A DNA stretch of 64,000 nt from Bdellovibrio bacteriovorus str. Tiberius (lineage in GTDB: Bacteria > Bdellovibrionota > Bdellovibrionia > Bdellovibrionales > Bdellovibrionaceae): positions 2,976,001 through 3,040,000 of the forward strand of contig NC_019567.1 in assembly GCF_000317895.1 (NCBI RefSeq), read 5' to 3'. A program made the position numbers and the translations under genes. Below the pieces are notes generated by a model. That model searched no databases. It had not been told where the DNA came from and saw only the letters and a program-made list of their open reading frames with translations. Position 1 is the first letter of the stretch; every line of letters begins with the position of its first letter. Shown one piece after another: positions 6,455-59,821 of the stretch.

Positions 6455-9253
6455 GTGCGTAAGCTAATACTTCTTCTATTTTTATTGTGCGTTTCGTGTA
6501 CCAAACCCTTGGGCGAAGAAGATCCGTTGGATCAACCTTCCACCGAAGCACCGGGCGCATTCAACCTTGCGACCATTCAGCGATTTGATCACCAGCTGCT
6601 GGTTTCCTGGAGCACTTCCAAAGGTGCTTCTTCTTACGAATTAAAATACGGAACGACTGCCGGCACTTATACCAATTCAATCAAAGCCAGCAAGTCCCCG
6701 GTTGTGATTGAAAGCGGCCTTGTGCCGGGAACGACTTATTACTTCCGCGTCACTGCCAGCAATGAAATTGGTACAGTGGATTCTTCCTCTGAGAAAAGCT
6801 ATCCGTACATGGGCGCTCCGGGCGAATTTGCCCTGCTCACCGTCTTGCCTGGAAACAACCAGGTGGCTCTGACCTGGGAAGCCAGCCCCGAAGCTTCCTC
6901 TTACACGGTGATGTATGGCACCAGCGCAGGCAGCATGACAACCTCGGCCGGAAATTCACTGACCACGGCGAAAACAGTATCCACACTTGATAACGGCACG
7001 ACTTACTATTTCTCTGTCATCGCCAAGAACTCGGTTGGCAATGCCACTTCGACAAACACCCTGTCTGCCACACCAAGTCCTCCGCCGACAGCACCGCTGA
7101 ACCTGACGGCGACCGCCGCTTCCACGAAGTGCACGCTGACCTGGGAAGCTCCCGCCACTGGCACAGCGCCCTTCGTGTACACGGTCCGTCGTGTGACAGG
7201 TCCGGGCACCGATGTGGCTGTTTGCACCAACACTCCCCTTCTGGCTTGTGAAGAAACCATCGCCGCAGGCAACTATCAATATACCGTGGAAGCCACAAAT
7301 GCTTCTGGCACTGGAGCCAAATCAAGTGAGGTGTCCTGCCCGGTCGGACTGCCGGGAGCATTCCAAATGCTGACCGCGACGCCGGGTGATGGCCGTACAA
7401 CCCTGACTTGGGAAGCCAGCAGTCTTGCGACTGCCTACACCGTTCGTTATGGAACCAGTGTCGGCACTATAAACACAGTGGCCTCAACCACGGCGACATC
7501 CCCGTACATCGTCACCGGTCTGACCAACATGGTTCCGTACTATTTCTCGGTGACGGCAACAAATGCGGTGGGTTCGAAAATTTCCACCAACACGCTTAGC
7601 GCCACCCCGAACATTCCTCCAACGGTTCCCTTGACGCCGACTGTGACCGTGCCAGAGATCGGCAAGTGCACGCTGAACTGGATGCCGCCCGCCAGCGGGG
7701 CTCCACCCATCACTTACACCGTTCGCCGTATTGTGAATCCAAGTGTGAATGTAGTGATTTGCGAAAATATCGCCACCAGAACATGCTCTGAAGAAGGGCT
7801 TTCCGGCGGGACATACAACTACACGATCGAAGCCATCAATTCTGTCGGCACCGGTCCTGCCACTGGCAACATTGCCTGCAGCCTTGCCGTTCCTGTCGCC
7901 GCCACTTTTGGCGCACCGACCATGGGGAACAAGAAAGCAACTTTGACCTGGACCGGCGGAAGCGGCGCAAATTCTTTCACCGTGAAATACGGCACCACAA
8001 ATCCGCCGACCACCGTGGCCTCGGCATCTGCCACCTCCCCTTATGTGATTGAAAGTCTGACCAACGGAACTTTGTACAATTTCCGGGTTGAAGCTGTGAA
8101 CGCCTACGGAACCACCACATCGACGAATCGCACGGGAACTCCGGTCAGCAATCCACCGACACTGACCTGGACAGGGCAATTGACCACAACGATTGCCGCC
8201 CTGAACAGCATCACCACGCGTAATTTCACCATTGCTGATCCTGATCCCGAAGACAACGTGGATTGCGCTAGCTCTGTGACTGCGACGACTTCCGATCCCA
8301 CGATTGTTCCGCAGGGAAATATCGTCATTGGCGGCAGCGGATTAAACTGCAATATTTCTGTCACTCCGGCGGCAGGCTCTTCCGGATTTGCCACGGTTTC
8401 CATTGTTGTTTCTGACGGTCAGGCCAGCTCCACGACGAACTTGAGTGTGTACCGTCTGCCAGCGGCGCAAAGAATCTATTCCTGGAAAAAATACGGGTCT
8501 TACGGCGGCCCGGCCATTCGTGTTCGTCGCACAGCCGACAATGCTGAAGCAGACATTTATTTTGACAGCAACGGCCTGGTGAATAAAACCGCTTTCGACA
8601 CTTTCAGAAGCGGCGGCACGCCGACCCTGGTAAGATGGTATGATCAAAGTGGCAACGGCATTGATGCTGTCCAAACAACGGCGGCCTATCAGCCCAACGT
8701 CAGCATTACGACGGCGGGGATTTTAAATATCACCACCTCCACAGCAGCCCATGCGCTGACGGTGCCAAATTTCCCGGCGTCCACCGCGAACACGATTTAT
8801 ATGAATTTCTTCTATACGGCCGACAGTGTGCTTAAAGAGCTTTTCTCGTACGGAACACATGAAGCTGGTTCCCGATCCGGATTCCATCTGAGCAAGAACA
8901 CCGGCACCACCGGCACTTGGCTGGGCCTCACGGCCCTTGATGGCAACACCTGGGAAACCACGACAGGAGCAGCAAGCAGCGCCAGCGAACGGGGGCTTGC
9001 CCTTGTGGTCAACACTTCAACGATGAAACGAGATGTGATTACGGCAACGGTGGGAGCATCCGCCGCTGCAACAAGAGCCACCGGGAATATGACGGCCTAT
9101 GCTGCTCCGGCTGGAGGAACTCCCCTGCATGTCTTTGCCGGCGGGACAGCTGGTGCCAGCAATCCGATTCGCGGCATTACGAAAGAAATCCTGATCTGGA
9201 ATCAGGAACTTGCGAACGACCAAATCAAAGCTTTGGCCACTCAGAACAACTAA
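6455..9253 (+). CDS. fibronectin-III repeat lipoprotein with ConA-like C-terminal domain
   Basis: 932 residues, GTG start. A short signal peptide ends in the lipobox LCVSC, so Cys16 should be lipidated. Six fibronectin type III-like domains follow (roughly residues 33-570), two of them a variant with paired cysteines (for example TKCTLTWEAP). A beta-sandwich linker (about 575-670) and a C-terminal ConA/LamG-like domain (about 680-930) containing LVRWYDQSGNGIDA, a motif seen in arabinofuranosidase-B-like and lectin-like modules, complete it. I infer an outer-membrane surface protein for binding glycans or prey surfaces. No catalytic residues are recognised. It stands alone between hydroxyacid-related genes. 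Confidence 0.82.
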   Translation: MRKLILLLFLLCVSCTKPLGEEDPLDQPSTEAPGAFNLATIQRFDHQLLVSWSTSKGASSYELKYGTTAGTYTNSIKASKSPVVIESGLVPGTTYYFRVTASNEIGTVDSSSEKSYPYMGAPGEFALLTVLPGNNQVALTWEASPEASSYTVMYGTSAGSMTTSAGNSLTTAKTVSTLDNGTTYYFSVIAKNSVGNATSTNTLSATPSPPPTAPLNLTATAASTKCTLTWEAPATGTAPFVYTVRRVTGPGTDVAVCTNTPLLACEETIAAGNYQYTVEATNASGTGAKSSEVSCPVGLPGAFQMLTATPGDGRTTLTWEASSLATAYTVRYGTSVGTINTVASTTATSPYIVTGLTNMVPYYFSVTATNAVGSKISTNTLSATPNIPPTVPLTPTVTVPEIGKCTLNWMPPASGAPPITYTVRRIVNPSVNVVICENIATRTCSEEGLSGGTYNYTIEAINSVGTGPATGNIACSLAVPVAATFGAPTMGNKKATLTWTGGSGANSFTVKYGTTNPPTTVASASATSPYVIESLTNGTLYNFRVEAVNAYGTTTSTNRTGTPVSNPPTLTWTGQLTTTIAALNSITTRNFTIADPDPEDNVDCASSVTATTSDPTIVPQGNIVIGGSGLNCNISVTPAAGSSGFATVSIVVSDGQASSTTNLSVYRLPAAQRIYSWKKYGSYGGPAIRVRRTADNAEADIYFDSNGLVNKTAFDTFRSGGTPTLVRWYDQSGNGIDAVQTTAAYQPNVSITTAGILNITTSTAAHALTVPNFPASTANTIYMNFFYTADSVLKELFSYGTHEAGSRSGFHLSKNTGTTGTWLGLTALDGNTWETTTGAASSASERGLALVVNTSTMKRDVITATVGASAAATRATGNMTAYAAPAGGTPLHVFAGGTAGASNPIRGITKEILIWNQELANDQIKALATQNN

Positions 9254-9255
9254 AT

Positions 9256-10461
9256 CTAGTAAACCACACGTGTGCGGATGGAACGGGACAACTTCTCGAT
9301 ATCCGCCGCCAGCGTGTGCGCCTGACTGGAATGCAGATCCATCACCAGATAACCGATCTTTTCATCCGTCGACAGATATTGACCTTCGATATTGGCCCCG
9401 GCTTTGGAGATCAAACCGTTGATTTCACCCAAGACCCCCGGCTCGTTGCGGTGGACGTTCAAAATACGCGATGTCCCCTGCTTCACTGGCAGATCCACAT
9501 TCGGGAAATTCACTGCCCCCGGCGAAGAACCAATTTTCAAATAACGACGGAAGCTTTCCGCCACCTCAAGACCGATGGCATACTGGGCTTCCTCGGTGCT
9601 GCCCGCGATGTGCGGGGTCAGAATCACGTTGGGAATTCCCTGCAATGGGGATTTGAATTTTTCTTTGTTGGAAGCCGGCTCTTCCGGGAACACGTCGATC
9701 GCACAACCGCCCAGATGTTTTTCCTGAAGGGACTTTACCAGATCTTCAATCACCACCACGGTGCCGCGGCTGGCATTGATCAGGAAGCTGCCTTTTTTCA
9801 TCATCGACAGTTCTCGCGCACCGATCATGTCTTTCGTTTCCGGCGTTTCAGGCACGTGCAAGGTCACAAAGTCTGAACTGCGCAAAAGATCTTCCAGCGA
9901 GTTCTGTACCATGGCATTCCCCAGTGGAAGTTTCTTCAGTACATCATAGAACAGCACCTTCAAGCCCATGGATTCAGCTAGAATGCTGACCTGACTTCCG
10001 ATGTGACCATAACCCACGATCCCCAATGTTTTGCCACGGACTTCTTTCGAACCCACGGCAGACTTCACCCACTCGCCCAAATGAGCTTGGGTGTTTCGGT
10101 CGCCCAGTTGACGGGACAATGAAATCATTTCCGCGATGACCAGTTCCGCCACGGAACGAGTGTTGGAATGAGGAGCATTGAACACCGGAATACCCCGCTC
10201 GCGCGCGGTCAGAAGGTCCACTTGATTTGTTCCAATACAGAAGCAGCCAATGGTGACCAGATGCTTGTTGGAATCCAGAACTTTTTTGGTGACTTCCGTT
10301 TTAGAACGGATCCCCAGCACATCATAGTTCGGAAGAAGTTTCAGCAGTTCGTCTTCGGAAGGAGCATGTGTGATCAGATCGACTTTGTAGCCTTCTTCCT
10401 CCAGCCTTTCCTTCGCAACGGTGTGAATGTTTTCAACCAACAAGATTCTTTGAGCGCTCAT
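9256..10461 (-). CDS. serA: D-3-phosphoglycerate dehydrogenase
   Basis: 401 residues: a substrate domain, a Rossmann NAD domain with the GIVGYGHIGSQ fingerprint, catalytic elements typical of D-2-hydroxyacid dehydrogenases (SRGTVV and the LTPHIAGST His), and a C-terminal ACT domain (about 325-401) for serine feedback control. This matches the E. coli SerA layout and length. It oxidises 3-phosphoglycerate in the first step of serine synthesis. A GGAGG ribosome site precedes the ATG. The gene is monocistronic and divergent from the sigma-54 regulator. Confidence 0.93.
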   Translation of the reverse strand: MSAQRILLVENIHTVAKERLEEEGYKVDLITHAPSEDELLKLLPNYDVLGIRSKTEVTKKVLDSNKHLVTIGCFCIGTNQVDLLTARERGIPVFNAPHSNTRSVAELVIAEMISLSRQLGDRNTQAHLGEWVKSAVGSKEVRGKTLGIVGYGHIGSQVSILAESMGLKVLFYDVLKKLPLGNAMVQNSLEDLLRSSDFVTLHVPETPETKDMIGARELSMMKKGSFLINASRGTVVVIEDLVKSLQEKHLGGCAIDVFPEEPASNKEKFKSPLQGIPNVILTPHIAGSTEEAQYAIGLEVAESFRRYLKIGSSPGAVNFPNVDLPVKQGTSRILNVHRNEPGVLGEINGLISKAGANIEGQYLSTDEKIGYLVMDLHSSQAHTLAADIEKLSRSIRTRVVY

Positions 10462-53517: not shown

Positions 53518-56439
53518 CTAGAAAGTGACTGGCATCATGTGCGGAATTTTTCCTGCATCGGAGTTTCCGATGATCATACCGCGCACTTTGGAGTGACGTG
53601 TAGCTGGCTGGAACGGAAGGCCTTTGTAGTTCGGGGATTGAACTGCAGGGACCCAGCGTCCGGAACCGTCCACCATCCATTCACGGAAGTACATGTTGAT
53701 GTGAGTACCTTCAACCAAGTAATCAATGGTGGTGCCCGCACCCGCAAGGGCCATCGCCGCGCGGAATGTGAACAGATTCTCTGCCATACCTTCACCGAAT
53801 GCGCCATAAGCGGCCGCAAACGCCTTAGCATCGGAGTTCATCGTTTTGTACATGGTTTTCAAAGCATAGTACATTTTGCTTGCAGCCTCGGCCGTTTTCT
53901 TGGTCGTGACGTTCACGCAAGAACCCGGAATACGAGATCCGCCATCCATCATGCACAGATCGTAAGGATCGTTGCGCTCGTTGAAGTAGGAGTAGATCTG
54001 ATCCGTGGACTTGTCGATGAAGGCATCCTGACTCATGGTCTGAGCCGCTCTCATCAGTCTCATGGTGTTTTCGTCACTGAAGTTCACGTTGAATTCAATG
54101 CCGGTATAACCCAGATCTGCATCAGGCACGCCCACCATCAGGGAATCCAGGCCGGTCTTTTTAACCAAAGCATAGATGCCGGATCTTAGACGCTTGCCGT
54201 TGGCGCTTTCATGCTTGAAGGCATAAGAATAAGTACCAAACATGCTTTCCATGCGTGCTTTGCTGTCCCAGTTCTCAACCGAGTATTTCGCTCCGTAGAA
54301 CATGAAGTCTTTTTCTTTGTGCTTGAACCAGAAGCGGCTGTCTTCGGAATCAGAATAGATACCGTAGTTCACAACTGCTGTATTGCGGTCCAGATGCATT
54401 TCAGAAGTGGTGTAAGAATTGATCTTACCTTTGCTGTACGTTTTGTCCCAAATGATCGGCAAAGCCAAAGATTTGCTGACAACACGGCCCGTCGCAACGG
54501 ATCTGAAGGTTTCAACTTTTACCACCGGTGCGCGCTCAACCAAGTTTCTTGGTTTGTCGGCTGACAGTGTTTCTGACGCCAGAACGTTACCACGGATCAC
54601 GTCTTCGTAAGCTTTGCGGCCAGTATCGGTCGTCAAATCAAACAAGAACGAGAACCCATCGTCTGAAGATCTGAACTCACTCAAGCTTAAAGTCAGGATG
54701 GATACGTTGGTGAACATCGAGAAGCTGTTCAGCTTACCTTTGGACATTTTTACGTAAGCACGCTCAGAGCCGACTTTTTCCACGTAAGTTTCCCAAGTAC
54801 CGTTCGCCAGTTTCGCCACCCCTGCACCGATTGGACCGAAGCCCGCGCCTGCAGAGAAGATGATTCCTCCGTGACCGATGTAGGTGATGCTGTCACCTGG
54901 ATCCCAAGTGTCCAGATCTGCTGCATCCTTAGGTACAGACCAGCGACCACCCATATTACGGGCTTTGTCCAGAGTGCTCACATAGCGAACAGACTCTGTC
55001 TCTTTGCCCATGATTGGCAGAACGCCGACATAACCCCAGAAGTGCTGACGCAAACCTGTCGCATTGTCGAACCAGAAACGCACCTGAGCACCCAGACCCA
55101 CTTCGATTGCGCCGTAGACAGTTTTTTGGAAACCATCACGGTAATCGCCATAGATCAATGTATCGGAAGTCGGACGGTAGTCATACTTCACGATGGATGT
55201 CGGCTGCACATTTCTGAAGTGCGGAGTCAGATTCACGATGTACTGACCATAATCGAAGCTCAGATGGAACAGAGGCTTCAATTTTGCTCTGAGTTTGTTT
55301 TTCTCTTCTTCTTTGAATCCAGTCGAGCTGGAGGACGTCGCTGTGGACTCTCCGGTCGTTGATGTCGAAGTGGAGGTTGAAGACGAGGAAGAACTGGATG
55401 ACGTTGTCACTTCACCTGTCGTGGACGTTGTCACAGAAGTCGACGTTGCCGTCGTTACTGTGGTCGCCGTATCAGGATTGTAAGTGGTGGCCGTCGAAGT
55501 TGGTCCATAAGTACTTGTGCTTGGACCATAAGTCGTTGCAGTCGTATAACCAGTGGACTGATGACCTGTTGTGTAGCCAGTGCTGTAACCCGTACTGTAA
55601 CCCGTGGAATAGCCAGTTGTGTAGCCGGTGCTGTATCCAGTTGTATAACCAGTGGAATACCCAGTCGTGTCACCTTTATGGCCGTTAGTGCCATAATTGC
55701 CCTTGTGACCATTGTCACCTTTATGACCGTTATCGCCTTTATGACCATTGTCTCCACGGTCCCCATTGTTACCGTAGTTGCCCTTACTGCCTTTATCGCC
55801 GTGATCACCGTTGTCGCCGTTGTTGCCATAATTGCCTTTAGAGCCTTTTTCACCACGGTCCCCGTTGTTACCGTAGTTGCCTTTACTGCCCTTATCGCCG
55901 TGATCACCATTGTCGCCGTTGTTGCCGTAATTGCCTTTAGAGCCTTTCTCACCACGGTCACCATTGTTGCCGTAATTGCCTTTATCACCATGGTCACCAT
56001 TATTACCATAGTTGCCTTTACTGCCCTTATCGCCGTGATCACCGTTGTTGCCGTAATTACCTTTATCACCATGGTCACCATTGTTACCATAGTTGCCTTT
56101 ATCGCCCTTGTTCCCAAGAATGCCGTGGTTTCCTAGAACACCATGATCACCGTTATCTCCGTGGTCACCATTGTTGCCATAGTTGCCTTTGCTACCTTTG
56201 TCACCATGGTCACCGTTGTTCCCATAGTTGCCCTTGTCCCCTTTGTTGCCGTTGCCGATGATCCCTTTGGTACCATTGCCCCCAGGCGTTGAATTCCAAT
56301 TTACGAATCCGCCTTGGCCTCCGGTTTGGATCAATTGAGTATTTTTCGTGACGGTTTCAGATGGTGCATTCGCAAAAGCGACGTTTGCAACCATTGTCAT
56401 TCCCGCCAGGAAAATCACCTTCCCTGACTTCCCACCCAT
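53518..56439 (-). CDS. collagen-like repeat surface fibre protein
   Basis: 973 residues. Signal peptide (cut near AFA-NA, about residue 24). Residues 64-258 are 65 uninterrupted Gly-X-Y triplets built from GNY, GNN, GDH, GDK, GSK and similar, with no proline. Residues 259-300 repeat Gly-Tyr-Ser/Thr-Thr; 300-374 are almost only Ser and Thr. A globular domain of about 600 residues follows, with aromatic and charged strands and few cysteines. Collagen-like triplets trimerise into rods in bacteria; the layout suggests a stalked trimeric fibre with a large tip domain. AAGGAG site. It belongs to no family I know outside the repeats. Confidence 0.85.
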   Translation of the reverse strand: MGGKSGKVIFLAGMTMVANVAFANAPSETVTKNTQLIQTGGQGGFVNWNSTPGGNGTKGIIGNGNKGDKGNYGNNGDHGDKGSKGNYGNNGDHGDNGDHGVLGNHGILGNKGDKGNYGNNGDHGDKGNYGNNGDHGDKGSKGNYGNNGDHGDKGNYGNNGDRGEKGSKGNYGNNGDNGDHGDKGSKGNYGNNGDRGEKGSKGNYGNNGDNGDHGDKGSKGNYGNNGDRGDNGHKGDNGHKGDNGHKGNYGTNGHKGDTTGYSTGYTTGYSTGYTTGYSTGYSTGYSTGYTTGHQSTGYTTATTYGPSTSTYGPTSTATTYNPDTATTVTTATSTSVTTSTTGEVTTSSSSSSSSTSTSTSTTGESTATSSSSTGFKEEEKNKLRAKLKPLFHLSFDYGQYIVNLTPHFRNVQPTSIVKYDYRPTSDTLIYGDYRDGFQKTVYGAIEVGLGAQVRFWFDNATGLRQHFWGYVGVLPIMGKETESVRYVSTLDKARNMGGRWSVPKDAADLDTWDPGDSITYIGHGGIIFSAGAGFGPIGAGVAKLANGTWETYVEKVGSERAYVKMSKGKLNSFSMFTNVSILTLSLSEFRSSDDGFSFLFDLTTDTGRKAYEDVIRGNVLASETLSADKPRNLVERAPVVKVETFRSVATGRVVSKSLALPIIWDKTYSKGKINSYTTSEMHLDRNTAVVNYGIYSDSEDSRFWFKHKEKDFMFYGAKYSVENWDSKARMESMFGTYSYAFKHESANGKRLRSGIYALVKKTGLDSLMVGVPDADLGYTGIEFNVNFSDENTMRLMRAAQTMSQDAFIDKSTDQIYSYFNERNDPYDLCMMDGGSRIPGSCVNVTTKKTAEAASKMYYALKTMYKTMNSDAKAFAAAYGAFGEGMAENLFTFRAAMALAGAGTTIDYLVEGTHINMYFREWMVDGSGRWVPAVQSPNYKGLPFQPATRHSKVRGMIIGNSDAGKIPHMMPVTF
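55318..55539 (-). repeat. Ser/Thr-rich low-complexity stalk
   Basis: Encodes residues 301-374 of the fibre protein: TYGPST-type units, then runs of Ser and Thr including eight consecutive serines. Probable flexible or glycosylated stalk. Confidence 0.75.
55540..55665 (-). repeat. 12-bp tandem repeats coding Gly-Tyr-Ser/Thr-Thr
   Basis: About nine tetrapeptide units of GYST or GYTT plus one GHQST variant, residues 259-300 of the fibre protein. In-frame gain or loss of units is possible. Confidence 0.85.
55666..56250 (-). repeat. collagen-like Gly-X-Y coding repeats
   Basis: 65 triplets, arranged in larger blocks of 15-24 residues (GNYGNNGDHGDKGSK type) that recur with small changes. The pattern shows expansion by block duplication. 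Confidence 0.92.
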
Positions 56440-56737: not shown

Positions 56738-57352
56738 ATGAAATTGAAGGAAGACCTGAAATTCATCTTCAAACAAGGAAAGAAGATTCTGATAATGAGC
56801 TTCTTCACGTTGAATGTCGGCATCATGATTGTCGATGGACTGCCCGATCAAAGCACACTCGGTGAGCGATTCATCAAAGCCGTGCGTCGCTATCAGGCCA
56901 TGGTGATGCTTTACCAGCCCTGGGCCATGTTTGCCCCAAACCCGATGAACACCAACGCCCATATCGAAGCTGACCTGATCTTTGAAGACGGTTCAACCGG
57001 CGTCTGGAAAATGCCTCGCCCGACAATCATGCAGGGACCGCGAAAAGTGCTGACCGGAGATCGCTATCGTCTGTTCGGTCAGGAAACCCTGCTGCCGAAA
57101 GAAAATGAACTGGTTTGGTTTGATGTGTCCCGATTTATCACCCGCGAAGTGATGGAAGCTGAAACACACGGAAAAAACCGAGTTCTGAAAGAAGTTGTCT
57201 TCAAAAGATATCAAAGCCGCGTGCGACCTCCGCCAGAGGCGCCGTTGATTCCTCACGGGACTATGAGCACCAAATATGACACTGAAACCTTGTTCGTCTA
57301 TAAACCGACCTTCGAAAGGATTCGCCATGAAGCTAAAAACGATCTTCAATAA
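56738..57352 (+). CDS. QPWxMFAPNP-motif membrane protein, HTTM partner (copy 1)
   Basis: 204 residues: one N-terminal membrane helix (about residues 20-40), then an extracytoplasmic domain that opens with QPWAMFAPNP and ends IPHGTMSTKYD. The same landmarks are in the minus-strand copy. Proteins with this motif (DUF5819-like by my recollection) often adjoin HTTM genes. It overlaps the HTTM gene by 26 bp. AAGGA site. Function unknown. Confidence 0.75.
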   Translation: MKLKEDLKFIFKQGKKILIMSFFTLNVGIMIVDGLPDQSTLGERFIKAVRRYQAMVMLYQPWAMFAPNPMNTNAHIEADLIFEDGSTGVWKMPRPTIMQGPRKVLTGDRYRLFGQETLLPKENELVWFDVSRFITREVMEAETHGKNRVLKEVVFKRYQSRVRPPPEAPLIPHGTMSTKYDTETLFVYKPTFERIRHEAKNDLQ

Positions 57353-58271
57353 TTTCGAAGAATTTTTGTTCAAACCCCAGCCTGTCTATAGTGTTGCCCT
57401 GATGCGAATCGGCCTGGGTCTGATCTTATTGTTCAACTGGCTTATGCTTTATGCGGATCTGGATATCCTTTTCGGCCCCGATGGGATGGTTTCACTGCAG
57501 ACCGCTCAACAATACGGAAATCCCTTCCGCTATTCTTTATTTGATTATATGCCGAACACGTCGAAGGTGACTCACACCCTGGCCTTCATCAATCTGCTGG
57601 CCGTTCTGGCCATGACGTTTGGTGCCTGGACCCGCACCGCCATCTTTGTTGCCTTTGTGACTTTGATTTCATTTCACCACCGCAATGGCTTTGTCATGAA
57701 CAGCGCCGACTCGGTTTTAAGAAACTTTCTGTTTCTGCTGATGTTCACCCCCTGCGGCGATGCCTTCGCTATTGACCGCTGGCGTTTGCGCCTAAAAGGT
57801 CAGGCCCCTGAGGTGCCTGCAGAAAAAGCTCCTTGGGCCCTGCGCATGATCCAAATCCAATTCTGCGTTATCTATCTGGCCACGGTGATGTTCAAAATTA
57901 AAGGCGATCGGTGGGTCGACGGCACGGCCGTATATATCGCCACCCGACTGGATGACTTTGTCCGCTTTGAACTTCCACTGCTGAACAATATGATCTTTAT
58001 CAAATACCTGACCTGGTCCACGCTGCTGGTGGAATTTGCCTTGGGAACTTTGGTGTGGATCAAAGACCTTCGTTACTGGATTCTGCTGGCCGGAGTCGGA
58101 TTGCATCTGGGAATTGAGTACACCATGTCGATCCCCGTCTTTGAATGGGCGATGATTGTGGTGATGGTCAGCATGGTGGATTCACGGGATATCGAGCGCT
58201 GGATGGAAAAACTTCGCAAGTACCGCCAGCAAGCCCGCACGGCACAGACTCCCCAACCACAAACCACATAA
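57327..58271 (+). CDS. HTTM (gamma-carboxylase-like) membrane protein (copy 1)
   Basis: 314 residues with about seven membrane helices and HTTM landmarks: FKPQPVYSVALMRIGLGL at the start, HHRNGFVMNSAD and FTPCGDAFAIDRW, then QIQFCVIYLATVMFKIKGDRW. The domain is shared with vitamin K-dependent gamma-glutamyl carboxylase; bacterial members have no proven reaction. The ATG at 57327 lies inside the end of the partner gene. A close paralogue is encoded convergently. Confidence 0.85.
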   Translation: MKLKTIFNNFEEFLFKPQPVYSVALMRIGLGLILLFNWLMLYADLDILFGPDGMVSLQTAQQYGNPFRYSLFDYMPNTSKVTHTLAFINLLAVLAMTFGAWTRTAIFVAFVTLISFHHRNGFVMNSADSVLRNFLFLLMFTPCGDAFAIDRWRLRLKGQAPEVPAEKAPWALRMIQIQFCVIYLATVMFKIKGDRWVDGTAVYIATRLDDFVRFELPLLNNMIFIKYLTWSTLLVEFALGTLVWIKDLRYWILLAGVGLHLGIEYTMSIPVFEWAMIVVMVSMVDSRDIERWMEKLRKYRQQARTAQTPQPQTT

Positions 58272-58282
58272 AATCAGGACAT

Positions 58283-58313
58283 AAAAAAAGCCGCTGTTCC
58301 CAGCGGCTTTTTA
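58283..58313. terminator. bidirectional terminator between the two HTTM genes
   Basis: AAAAAAAGCCGCTG, loop TTCC, CAGCGGCTTTTT; runs on both sides. It is the symmetry centre of the inverted module pair. Confidence 0.92.
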
Positions 58314-58314
58314 T

Positions 58315-59268
58315 TTATTTGGATTTAACCAGGATCAGCGGTCTCCAGGCCAGAATGCTTGAAAACAGTCTGCCCTCTTTCGCCAGGGTCAGCCAGTCTT
58401 TCAGATCTTTTGGGTCCACCATGCAGATCATCGTGATAATCATGATCCATTCAAACATCGGGATATTCATCGAAAGCTCAATCCCCAGATGCAGTCCAAT
58501 CCCGGCCAGAATCACCCAGTACCGCAGCTCGCGAATCCAGATCAGCGTCCCCAAGGCAAACTCCACCAGCAGCGTGGACCAGGTCAGGAACTTGATCACC
58601 ACAAGACTGTTCAAAAGCCCCAGCGGCATTCGGACAAACTCATCAAGGCGTGTGGCGACATACACCGCTGTACCATCCGCCCATAAGGGCCCCTTCATCT
58701 TGAACATCACCGTGGCGATATAAATGACGCTGAATTGAATCTGCATCAACCGCAGCCCCCAGGGGGCCTTTTCCAAAGGCTCTGCCGGGGCCATCCCCTT
58801 GCGCACCTGCCACCAACGATCCAAGGACAGCCAGTCCCCACACGGAGTCAGGAACAACAAAAACAGGAAATTACGAATCACGATATCTGAACTGTTCAAA
58901 ACAAAGACGTTGCGGTTATGAAACGAGATCAGGGTGAAAAACGCCAAAGCAATCGAGGTGCGGGTGAAAACTCCGAACAACACCCCTATCACCGCCCCCA
59001 GATGAACCAAGGCAACCAATGCCGGCACACGTGGGTCTGGCGGAAGCAGATCAAACAGACTAAAACGGAACGCCCCTGCCATCTTCAAAGAGCTTTCCAA
59101 AGAGAAAATCCCCTCGACTCCCCAGAAGGTGTCCAGATGACTCCACACCATAAACCAATTAATCAGCAGCACCACCCCGAATAAAACCCGCAACAAAGCC
59201 ACGGTATGCACCGGCTGGGGCTTAAAGAAAAAATCATTCAAACCATTAGTGAGCGTTGTTAGCTTCAT
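58315..59268 (-). CDS. HTTM (gamma-carboxylase-like) membrane protein (copy 2)
   Basis: 317 residues, clear paralogue of copy 1: FFFKPQPVHTVALLRVLFG, HNRNVFVLNSSD, LTPCGDWLSLDRW, QIQFSVIYIATVMFKMKGPLW. About seven membrane helices. The ATG at 59268 overlaps the end of its partner gene by 23 bp, just as in copy 1. The DNA of the two copies is similar enough in places (for example the segment coding LTWSTLLVEFALGTL) to act as an inverted repeat. Confidence 0.85.
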   Translation of the reverse strand: MKLTTLTNGLNDFFFKPQPVHTVALLRVLFGVVLLINWFMVWSHLDTFWGVEGIFSLESSLKMAGAFRFSLFDLLPPDPRVPALVALVHLGAVIGVLFGVFTRTSIALAFFTLISFHNRNVFVLNSSDIVIRNFLFLLFLTPCGDWLSLDRWWQVRKGMAPAEPLEKAPWGLRLMQIQFSVIYIATVMFKMKGPLWADGTAVYVATRLDEFVRMPLGLLNSLVVIKFLTWSTLLVEFALGTLIWIRELRYWVILAGIGLHLGIELSMNIPMFEWIMIITMICMVDPKDLKDWLTLAKEGRLFSSILAWRPLILVKSK

Positions 59269-59821
59269 AACGAGGCCCTCCAGTCGGCTTAAAGTGGAAA
59301 ACACTTTCGCTGTTATAATCCTTGCTCATCTGACCATGAGGTATGAACACCTGGGTCGGCGGTTGAACAGTGCTGGTATGACGATAGAAATAAAGCTGTT
59401 CAAATTCACGCTTGCACCCGAACTGTTCCAGCTTAGCCACCTCGCGCGCCACATAGCGGGAAAGATCAAACCACAGCTCTGACTTTTCCATCGGCAACAG
59501 ATTGTCCTGCTGGTACTTGCGATAACGTTCACCGGCCGTGAAACGATCCCAGCCATCCAGCTGTGACGCCCGCGGGAATGTCCATTGTTCTGTCGAGCCA
59601 TCTTTGAATGTGATCGTGGCCGTTAGATACGAGTTCACTGAGGCTGGATTGGGAGCAAACATGCTCCAGGGTTGATCCAACCCAAAGAAAACCTGATACG
59701 GAGAAAGAGCCTGCAGAATGCGGTCACCGACTGCACTCCGGTCTGGCAATGCCGCCGTGACCATCATCACGATGTGACCAGTAATAAAGGCTGAAATCAG
59801 AACCTTCTTGAGTGCCGCCAT
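59246..59821 (-). CDS. QPWxMFAPNP-motif membrane protein, HTTM partner (copy 2)
   Basis: 191 residues from the ATG at 59821 (GGGGG site six bases upstream). N-terminal membrane helix, then QPWSMFAPNP, FKDGST, WFDLSRYVAREV and FIPHGQMSKDYNSE, each with a counterpart in copy 1. An exported soluble domain anchored by one helix is predicted. Overlaps the HTTM gene. Confidence 0.75.
   Translation of the reverse strand: MAALKKVLISAFITGHIVMMVTAALPDRSAVGDRILQALSPYQVFFGLDQPWSMFAPNPASVNSYLTATITFKDGSTEQWTFPRASQLDGWDRFTAGERYRKYQQDNLLPMEKSELWFDLSRYVAREVAKLEQFGCKREFEQLYFYRHTSTVQPPTQVFIPHGQMSKDYNSESVFHFKPTGGPRYEANNAH

What the first reader, a model, noticed from the sequence alone, without database searches (positions are those of the whole stretch)
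56738..59821. Convergent duplicated two-gene module with HTTM proteins
Two modules, each a QPWxMFAPNP-motif protein overlapping an HTTM protein by 26 or 23 bp, point at each other around one terminator. The conserved overlap shows that the whole module was duplicated and inverted. HTTM relates to vitamin K-dependent carboxylase, and the partner's function is unknown; two copies in a bacterium suggest two substrates or two conditions.
Basis: partly seen in the sequence, partly recalled or inferred. Interest (0 to 1): 0.66.

Follow-up and report, generated by a model that had tools for sequence, protein, structure and literature searches.

The report
Split vitamin-K-carboxylase-like maturase by collagen-like gene
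A predatory bacterium carries two copies of a two-part membrane protein resembling the blood-clotting vitamin K enzyme, next to a gene for a collagen-like protein that may be what it modifies.

Summary
Two convergent PART–HTTM modules (overlaps 26 and 23 nt) flank one terminator. They are sister paralogues: the whole module was duplicated before the sampled genus diversified. Convergence occurs in 6 of 11 two-copy genomes.

(1) The "unknown partner" is half of an enzyme: in relatives the same domain is fused C-terminally to HTTM in one chain (hhalign E 3e-13), and in 38 of 40 sampled standalone HTTM genes a PART gene lies directly upstream. (2) The HTTM model matches the membrane domain of human GGCX (residues 42–329, Z 22.9). 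The catalytic lysine (K218) is kept, but the Glu-site histidine (H160) is not, so γ-carboxylation is unsupported. The PART–GGCX match is weak (Z 5.4; profile tests negative). (3) An exported collagen-like gene (53518–56439) is the immediate neighbour of module A or B in 18 of 18 module-bearing genomes. A homologous C-terminal domain, often with Gly-X-Y repeats, also sits beside fused versions in other families.

Best explanation: a two-subunit, VKGC-like periplasmic maturase whose likely substrate is the neighbouring collagen-like protein. Subunit pairing is well supported; the substrate is a genomic inference; the chemistry is unknown.

The parts
56738..57352 (+). PA: PART subunit of module A (one N-terminal TM helix, QPWxMFAPNP motif, beta/alpha domain)
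   Evidence: same domain fused to HTTM in relatives
57327..58271 (+). HA: HTTM subunit of module A (GGCX-like membrane domain, K190 = GGCX K218)
58285..58312 (.). intrinsic terminator between the convergent modules
   Evidence: 12-pair stem with T tail; sequence
58315..59268 (-). HB: HTTM subunit of module B
59246..59821 (-). PB: PART subunit of module B
53518..56439 (-). COLL: exported collagen-like protein, proposed substrate (signal-like N-terminus, Gly-X-Y repeats about 55666-56250, ~500-aa conserved C-terminal domain)
   Evidence: PF01391 E 4e-29; repeats; neighbour of A or B in 18 of 18 module-bearing genomes; domain found beside fused HTTM-PART elsewhere

Best explanation
Each module encodes the two halves of one membrane enzyme of the HTTM/VKGC superfamily. 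HTTM is the multi-helix catalytic membrane domain, and PART supplies one TM helix, the linker that would close the quinone pocket (W-x-M-F), and a small periplasmic domain. The enzyme is proposed to act in the periplasm on the neighbouring exported collagen-like protein, using the conserved lysine and probably a quinol, to make a covalent modification that is not classical Glu gamma-carboxylation. The genus holds two paralogous enzymes, A and B. B is the copy at the ManC/LDT locus; A, where present, is mostly the one that stands next to the collagen-like gene. Shown: module anatomy, duplication, predicted HTTM fold, PART-HTTM pairing and fusion, linkage to the collagen-like gene. Inferred: physical complex, substrate, quinol use, chemistry. 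My step estimates: one two-subunit enzyme 0.85; collagen-like protein is the substrate 0.5; lysine/quinol chemistry 0.5; gamma-carboxylation as such 0.15.
For: PART is the C-terminal domain of single-chain HTTM proteins: 15 ORFs of 439-637 aa hold both in one frame (one is cut by a contig end); hhalign of PART vs the fused family E 3.3e-13 over 140 columns. Of 40 standalone HTTM genes picked without reference to the partner, 38 have PART directly upstream. HTTM model vs GGCX 42-329: Z 22.9, 281 residues, 3.5 A; Foldseek E 2e-7; hmmsearch E 7e-5. The PART model's best matches are GGCX 408-491, the stretch that follows GGCX's TMD-PBD linker (Z 5.4). K190 is conserved 20/20 here, 9/9 fused, 12/13 true VKGC (one gap), and H260 in all. 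Linkage: the collagen-like gene is adjacent in 18 of 18 genomes of the genus with a module; 16 of 18 PF01391 loci in the genus lie within 4 kb of a module. Outside the genus 10 of 59 places of its C-terminal domain lie within 3 kb of an HTTM/PART place, 0.45 expected. In the Bacteriovoracaceae genus g110, 6 of 17 PF01391 loci are adjacent. G005, G008 and G011 carry A with the collagen-like gene (G011 cut by a contig end) and B elsewhere.
Against: Sequence profiles do not join PART to the true VKGC lumenal domain or to any solved structure; the fused profile A4 found none either. The PART model is poor (pLDDT 69), Foldseek found nothing significant, and Z 5.4 lies in the range of common arrangements. 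Many collagen-like genes are not near a module: 23 of 35 loci in the 19 genomes searched. G169 has 55 collagen matches and no listed HTTM match. Paralogues of the C-terminal domain also stand away from any listed module (49 of 59). One linked protein, in G289, has no Gly-X-Y repeat. H160 and the NH motif are absent. None of the 40 standalone HTTM loci, most of them of the WNFFSPDP type, showed this neighbour in the short stretches read.
Confidence: 0.45

Rival explanations
1. A bona fide bacterial vitamin K-dependent gamma-glutamyl carboxylase split into two chains, making Gla (or beta-carboxy-Asp) residues in the periplasm.
For: GGCX fold of HTTM; catalytic Lys and pocket residues W196, H260 and F272 conserved in the window's HTTM family.
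Against: No His in the NSxD segment that aligns with GGCX H160 in 20 of 20 window-type sequences. No PF22777 lumenal domain in this genome; the phylum has separate true VKGCs with it in 14 of 290 genomes. The repeats of the neighbour are rich in Asn, Asp, Lys and Ser, with few Glu in the window's protein.
Confidence: 0.15
2. An SdpAB-like machine that processes a secreted peptide or protein precursor into an active, perhaps antibacterial, product.
For: HA and HB hit the SdpB family model (44.7 and 42.9 bits). SdpA and SdpB are needed to process the exported SdpC of the same operon (passages of PMC6818787). Layout here: partner, HTTM, exported neighbour.
Against: Scores are far below the SdpB cut-off of 178.4. 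No SdpA match in the PART families. The neighbour is a 973-aa collagen-like protein, not a small precursor.
Confidence: 0.2
3. The neighbourhood is coincidental or structural: the modules act on lipids, quinones or many exported proteins, and the collagen-like gene is a passenger of the same surface locus (with ManC and an L,D-transpeptidase).
For: HTTM-PART modules of other types occur without such a neighbour in the stretches read. Collagen-like genes exist without modules.
Against: The same C-terminal domain sits beside HTTM-PART genes in seven other genera with other gene context, and A stands with the collagen-like gene away from the ManC locus in G005 and G008.
Confidence: 0.25

Closest known systems
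Human gamma-glutamyl carboxylase GGCX / bacterial VKGC (HTTM + VKGC_lumenal_dom)
   Same: Membrane domain fold (Z 22.9), active-site Lys, conserved His on the later helix, soluble domain outside the membrane (inferred for PART)
   Different: Two chains instead of one; NSxD instead of the NH motif; PART not detectably homologous in sequence to the lumenal domain; much smaller
SdpA/SdpB of the sdpABC operon (Bacillus)
   Same: Two adjacent genes, HTTM-family SdpB, exported neighbour as substrate
   Different: SdpB score below cut-off; no SdpA match; neighbour is a large collagen-like protein
DUF5819 (PF19136)
   Same: Matches the stretch of PA and PB that holds W-x-M-F-A-P; an own-genome paralogue scores over the cut-off (37.4 bits; 38.4 bits)
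   Different: PA and PB score 19.3 and 21.0, under the cut-off 27.1; family has no known function
HTTM proteins of linaridin clusters (CrdG of corynaridin)
   Same: HTTM domain encoded beside a peptide to be matured (passage of PMC9927463)
   Different: RiPP cluster; no PART partner is mentioned in the passage seen
Bacterial collagen-like proteins (Scl, Lcl)
   Same: Gly-X-Y repeats (one search hits, all below cut-off)
   Different: Own ~500-aa C-terminal domain, Asn/Asp-rich repeats, and linkage to HTTM-PART

Membership tests
HTTM (PF05090) | curated score over 27.7 bits across the domain | tested here: met
   48.9 and 54.8 bits
Vitamin K-dependent carboxylase (VKGC/GGCX) | HTTM-type membrane domain with GGCX fold | tested here: met
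   Z 22.9 over 281 residues of GGCX 42-329; hhalign vs bacterial VKGC E 5e-8
Vitamin K-dependent carboxylase (VKGC/GGCX) | catalytic base K218 | tested here: met
   K190, 20 of 20
Vitamin K-dependent carboxylase (VKGC/GGCX) | Glu-site His H160 (NH motif) | tested here: not met
   N-S-(A/S/G)-D in 20 of 20, NH in 13 of 13 true VKGC
Vitamin K-dependent carboxylase (VKGC/GGCX) | VKGC lumenal domain PF22777 | tested here: not met
   no match in G000; hhalign PART vs VKGC not significant
Vitamin K-dependent carboxylase (VKGC/GGCX) | PART equivalent to the GGCX linker and propeptide-binding domain by fold | tested here: inconclusive
   best VIA-align rows are GGCX 408-491 at Z 5.4, Foldseek none
Vitamin K-dependent carboxylase (VKGC/GGCX) | carboxylation of Glu coupled to vitamin K epoxidation | not testable with these tools
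   needs biochemistry
SdpAB system | SdpB family score (TIGR04033, 178.4 bits) | tested here: not met
   44.7 and 42.9 bits
SdpAB system | SdpA partner | tested here: not met
   no SdpA model among NCBIfam hits of the PART families
DUF5819 (PF19136) | score over 27.1 bits | tested here: not met
   PA 19.3, PB 21.0; weak match in 21 of 21 members of A1
Collagen-like protein (the neighbour) | PF01391 over cut-off | tested here: met
   100.6 bits

The most novel reading that the evidence does not exclude
Bdellovibrio and its relatives make a collagen-like surface protein whose Gly-X-Y repeats are covalently modified in the periplasm by a dedicated two-subunit, quinol-dependent relative of the vitamin K carboxylase: a bacterial counterpart of collagen maturation built from the clotting-factor enzyme fold.
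Probability: 0.22. Interest if true: 0.88.

Novelty: new variant of a known kind. Interest (0 to 1): 0.62.

Why it matters
Bacterial HTTM proteins are numerous and mostly without known function; GGCX is the best understood relative, with recent structures. Showing that the usual form in this phylum is a two-gene enzyme whose second half (PART, DUF5819-like) had gone unrecognised, and that one branch stands beside collagen-like exported proteins in predatory bacteria, gives a named candidate substrate and a direct experiment. If true, it would explain how some bacterial collagens are matured and suggest what the VKGC fold does outside clotting.

Tried and rejected
Recent duplication: rejected, because both clades run through the genus with long branches. 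The A/B duplication being shared with the tandem modules of Bacteriovoracaceae: not supported; in the rooted HTTM tree Bdellovibrio A+B form one clade (98) apart from them. The PART tree resolves A and B worse, with A nested among B rows on weak branches, and its A+B clade has support 85. PART as a VKGC lumenal domain by sequence: not supported. SdpA identity: no match. Viral carriers of PB: none. The Foldseek list for PART held nothing significant; absence there proves nothing. Papers: searches of the open PMC library listed nothing that, by title and abstract start, links HTTM or DUF5819 to collagen-like proteins or describes this Bdellovibrio locus; subscription papers are not held.

Selection effects to keep in mind: the 40 standalone HTTM places were picked by hand from the listed part. 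The 19 genomes were chosen because they carry modules, ten of them because a linked collagen-domain gene was already known, so only the nine Bacteriovoracaceae g110 genomes (6 of 17 loci; in G292 the module lies at a contig end) are a cleaner test. The HTTM list used was truncated, so 10 of 59 is a lower bound. Binomial expectations ignore relatedness.

Full report
WHERE. The window lies in a single-contig genome of 3,988,594 bases. That G000 and G003 have the lengths of strains Tiberius and HD100 is recalled, not looked up.

WHAT IS THERE. PA (204 aa) runs into HA (314 aa) with a 26-nt overlap, and PB (191 aa) into HB (317 aa) with a 23-nt overlap. The modules converge on a terminator at 58285-58312. 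HA/HB are 57% and PA/PB 42% identical. HA and HB are HTTM proteins. PA and PB give only a sub-threshold DUF5819 match, but another PART gene of this genome, at 438 kb, passes that family's cut-off. The genome holds five HTTM places: A, B, two more split modules (L064, L066) and one 469-aa single chain.

DUPLICATION. Among 66 genomes of the family, close relatives of the partner occur only in the genus, in 18 of its 24 genomes. Both modules: 11 genomes (G000, G003, G005, G006, G008, G009, G010, G011, G021, G023, G025). A only: G004, whose HTTM frame is interrupted. B only: 6 (G012, G014, G015, G016, G017, G022). The two trees put A and B apart (PART: one branch, 100/99; HTTM: one branch each once rooted; in the unrooted HTTM tree a distant G007 row that I had labelled A breaks the count). 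With distant modules as outgroup, HTTM A (91) and B (99) are sisters (98). The frame of the overlap is invariant: 23 nt in every B module read whole, 23/26/32 in A. Both copies are under purifying selection (dN/dS 0.05-0.10 for all four genes, G000 vs G003, with dS high). Of the 11 two-copy genomes 6 are convergent, 1 tandem, 4 have the modules at separate loci.

THE PARTNER IS HALF AN ENZYME. A profile of PA/PB found, in the phylum, both standalone genes and matches inside frames of 440-640 aa. Fifteen frames hold HTTM at the N-terminus and PART at the C-terminus; some carry a DCC1-like thiol-disulfide domain in between (one over, one under the cut-off). hhalign of the partner family against nine fused proteins gives E 3.3e-13. 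In split modules PART is upstream of HTTM, in fused ones downstream. To avoid bias I took 40 standalone HTTM genes from a search with HTTM alone. In 38 the ORF directly upstream is PART; two of these (L201, L207) are weak by profile but keep W-x-M-F. Of the two misses one ends near a contig end (L189) and one has an unrelated gene upstream (L182). Myxobacteria carry a fused gene and a split pair side by side.

STRUCTURE AND ACTIVE SITE. The HTTM model (pLDDT 84) superposes on GGCX residues 42-329 (Z 22.9, 3.5 A, 281 residues, 16% identity). The PART model is mediocre (pLDDT 69). Its best structural matches are GGCX chains, residues 408-491 (Z 5.4), the part right after GGCX's TMD-PBD linker, but Foldseek alone finds nothing and the Z is low. 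By sequence PART does not match 13 true VKGCs of the phylum. So homology of PART to the GGCX domain is a lead, not shown. In the GGCX paper (PMC12589487, text parts 1 and 2 of 3 read) K218 is the base that deprotonates vitamin K hydroquinone, H160 and N159 hold the Glu, and M401/M402 of the linker line the pocket. Here K190 aligns with K218 and is invariant; H260 is shared by all; the NH motif of true VKGC is replaced by N-S-x-D. The enzyme may thus keep the quinol half of the reaction and have lost or changed the Glu site.

THE NEIGHBOUR. Directly beside the modules lies 53518-56439 (-): signal-like start, 65 uninterrupted Gly-X-Y triplets, then a conserved C-terminal domain. A gene of this kind is the immediate neighbour of A (11 genomes) or B (7) in all 18 module-bearing genomes. 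Fifteen of 18 keep the C-terminal domain next to the module; G009 and G021 have a truncated neighbour and an intact gene elsewhere, and G011 is cut by a contig end. In B-only genomes read beyond the module the order is ManC, (LDT), (DUF5666), PB, HB, collagen-like; the window is the same with A inserted, inverted, between HB and the collagen-like gene. In G005 and G008 the collagen-like gene is with A, away from B. In the genus 16 of 18 PF01391 loci lie within 4 kb of a module (from; G014 and G016 gave no PF01391 match though they have the neighbour).

OUTSIDE THE GENUS. The C-terminal domain has relatives in 77 of 290 genomes of the phylum, 20 of them in the genus. Of 59 strong places outside the genus, 10 (seven genera) lie within 3 kb of an HTTM/PART place, 0.45 expected; 49 do not. 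Six of the linked ones are placed head-to-tail with a fused HTTM-PART gene, their reading frames 7-74 nt apart, and in these six the linked gene carries PF01391 repeats. In the tandem-module genus of Bacteriovoracaceae an exported Asn/Gly-repeat protein with a different N-terminus lies just upstream; 6 of 17 PF01391 loci of its nine genomes are module-adjacent. Against: 23 of 35 collagen loci in the 19 genomes are not near a module, and some collagen-rich genomes (G169) have no listed HTTM hit.

INTERPRETATION. The best reading is a two-subunit, VKGC-like periplasmic maturase with a dedicated exported substrate encoded next to it, in layout like SdpAB-SdpC (passages of PMC6818787) but in neither family by membership test. 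Its "two substrates or two conditions" remains open: there is one collagen-like gene at the locus and two enzymes.

Noticed in passing
L159-L172 (14 of 290 phylum genomes): True single-chain VKGCs with the lumenal domain PF22777 and an intact NH and Lys site occur in this phylum, separate from HTTM-PART.
   Followed up: partly
L223, L224, L226, L229, L231, L232, L235, L236, L238, L239: Myxobacteria (Nannocystis and relatives) encode a fused HTTM-PART of 850-1040 aa next to a split PART + HTTM pair.
   Followed up: no
L128-L131, L137: Tandem PART-HTTM-PART-HTTM arrays in Bacteriovoracaceae, an independent doubling of the module.
   Followed up: partly
L087 (G004) 8411-9345: Module A HTTM is interrupted (stop/frame change near residue 252) in the one A-only genome.
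   Followed up: no
own genome 2,050 kb, 1,775 kb, 437 kb: Three further HTTM genes: two split modules (a W-N-F-F-S-P type and a DUF5819 type) and a 469-aa single chain without the W-x-M-F motif.
   Followed up: partly
one search places: The C-terminal domain of the collagen-like protein is a ~500-aa family with no Pfam match over cut-off and varied low-complexity N-termini (Pro-Thr, Gly-Asn, Gly-Asp-Met).
   Followed up: partly
L140 5137-6540: An exported Cys- and Ser/Thr-rich low-complexity protein abuts a PART-HTTM pair in another family.
   Followed up: no
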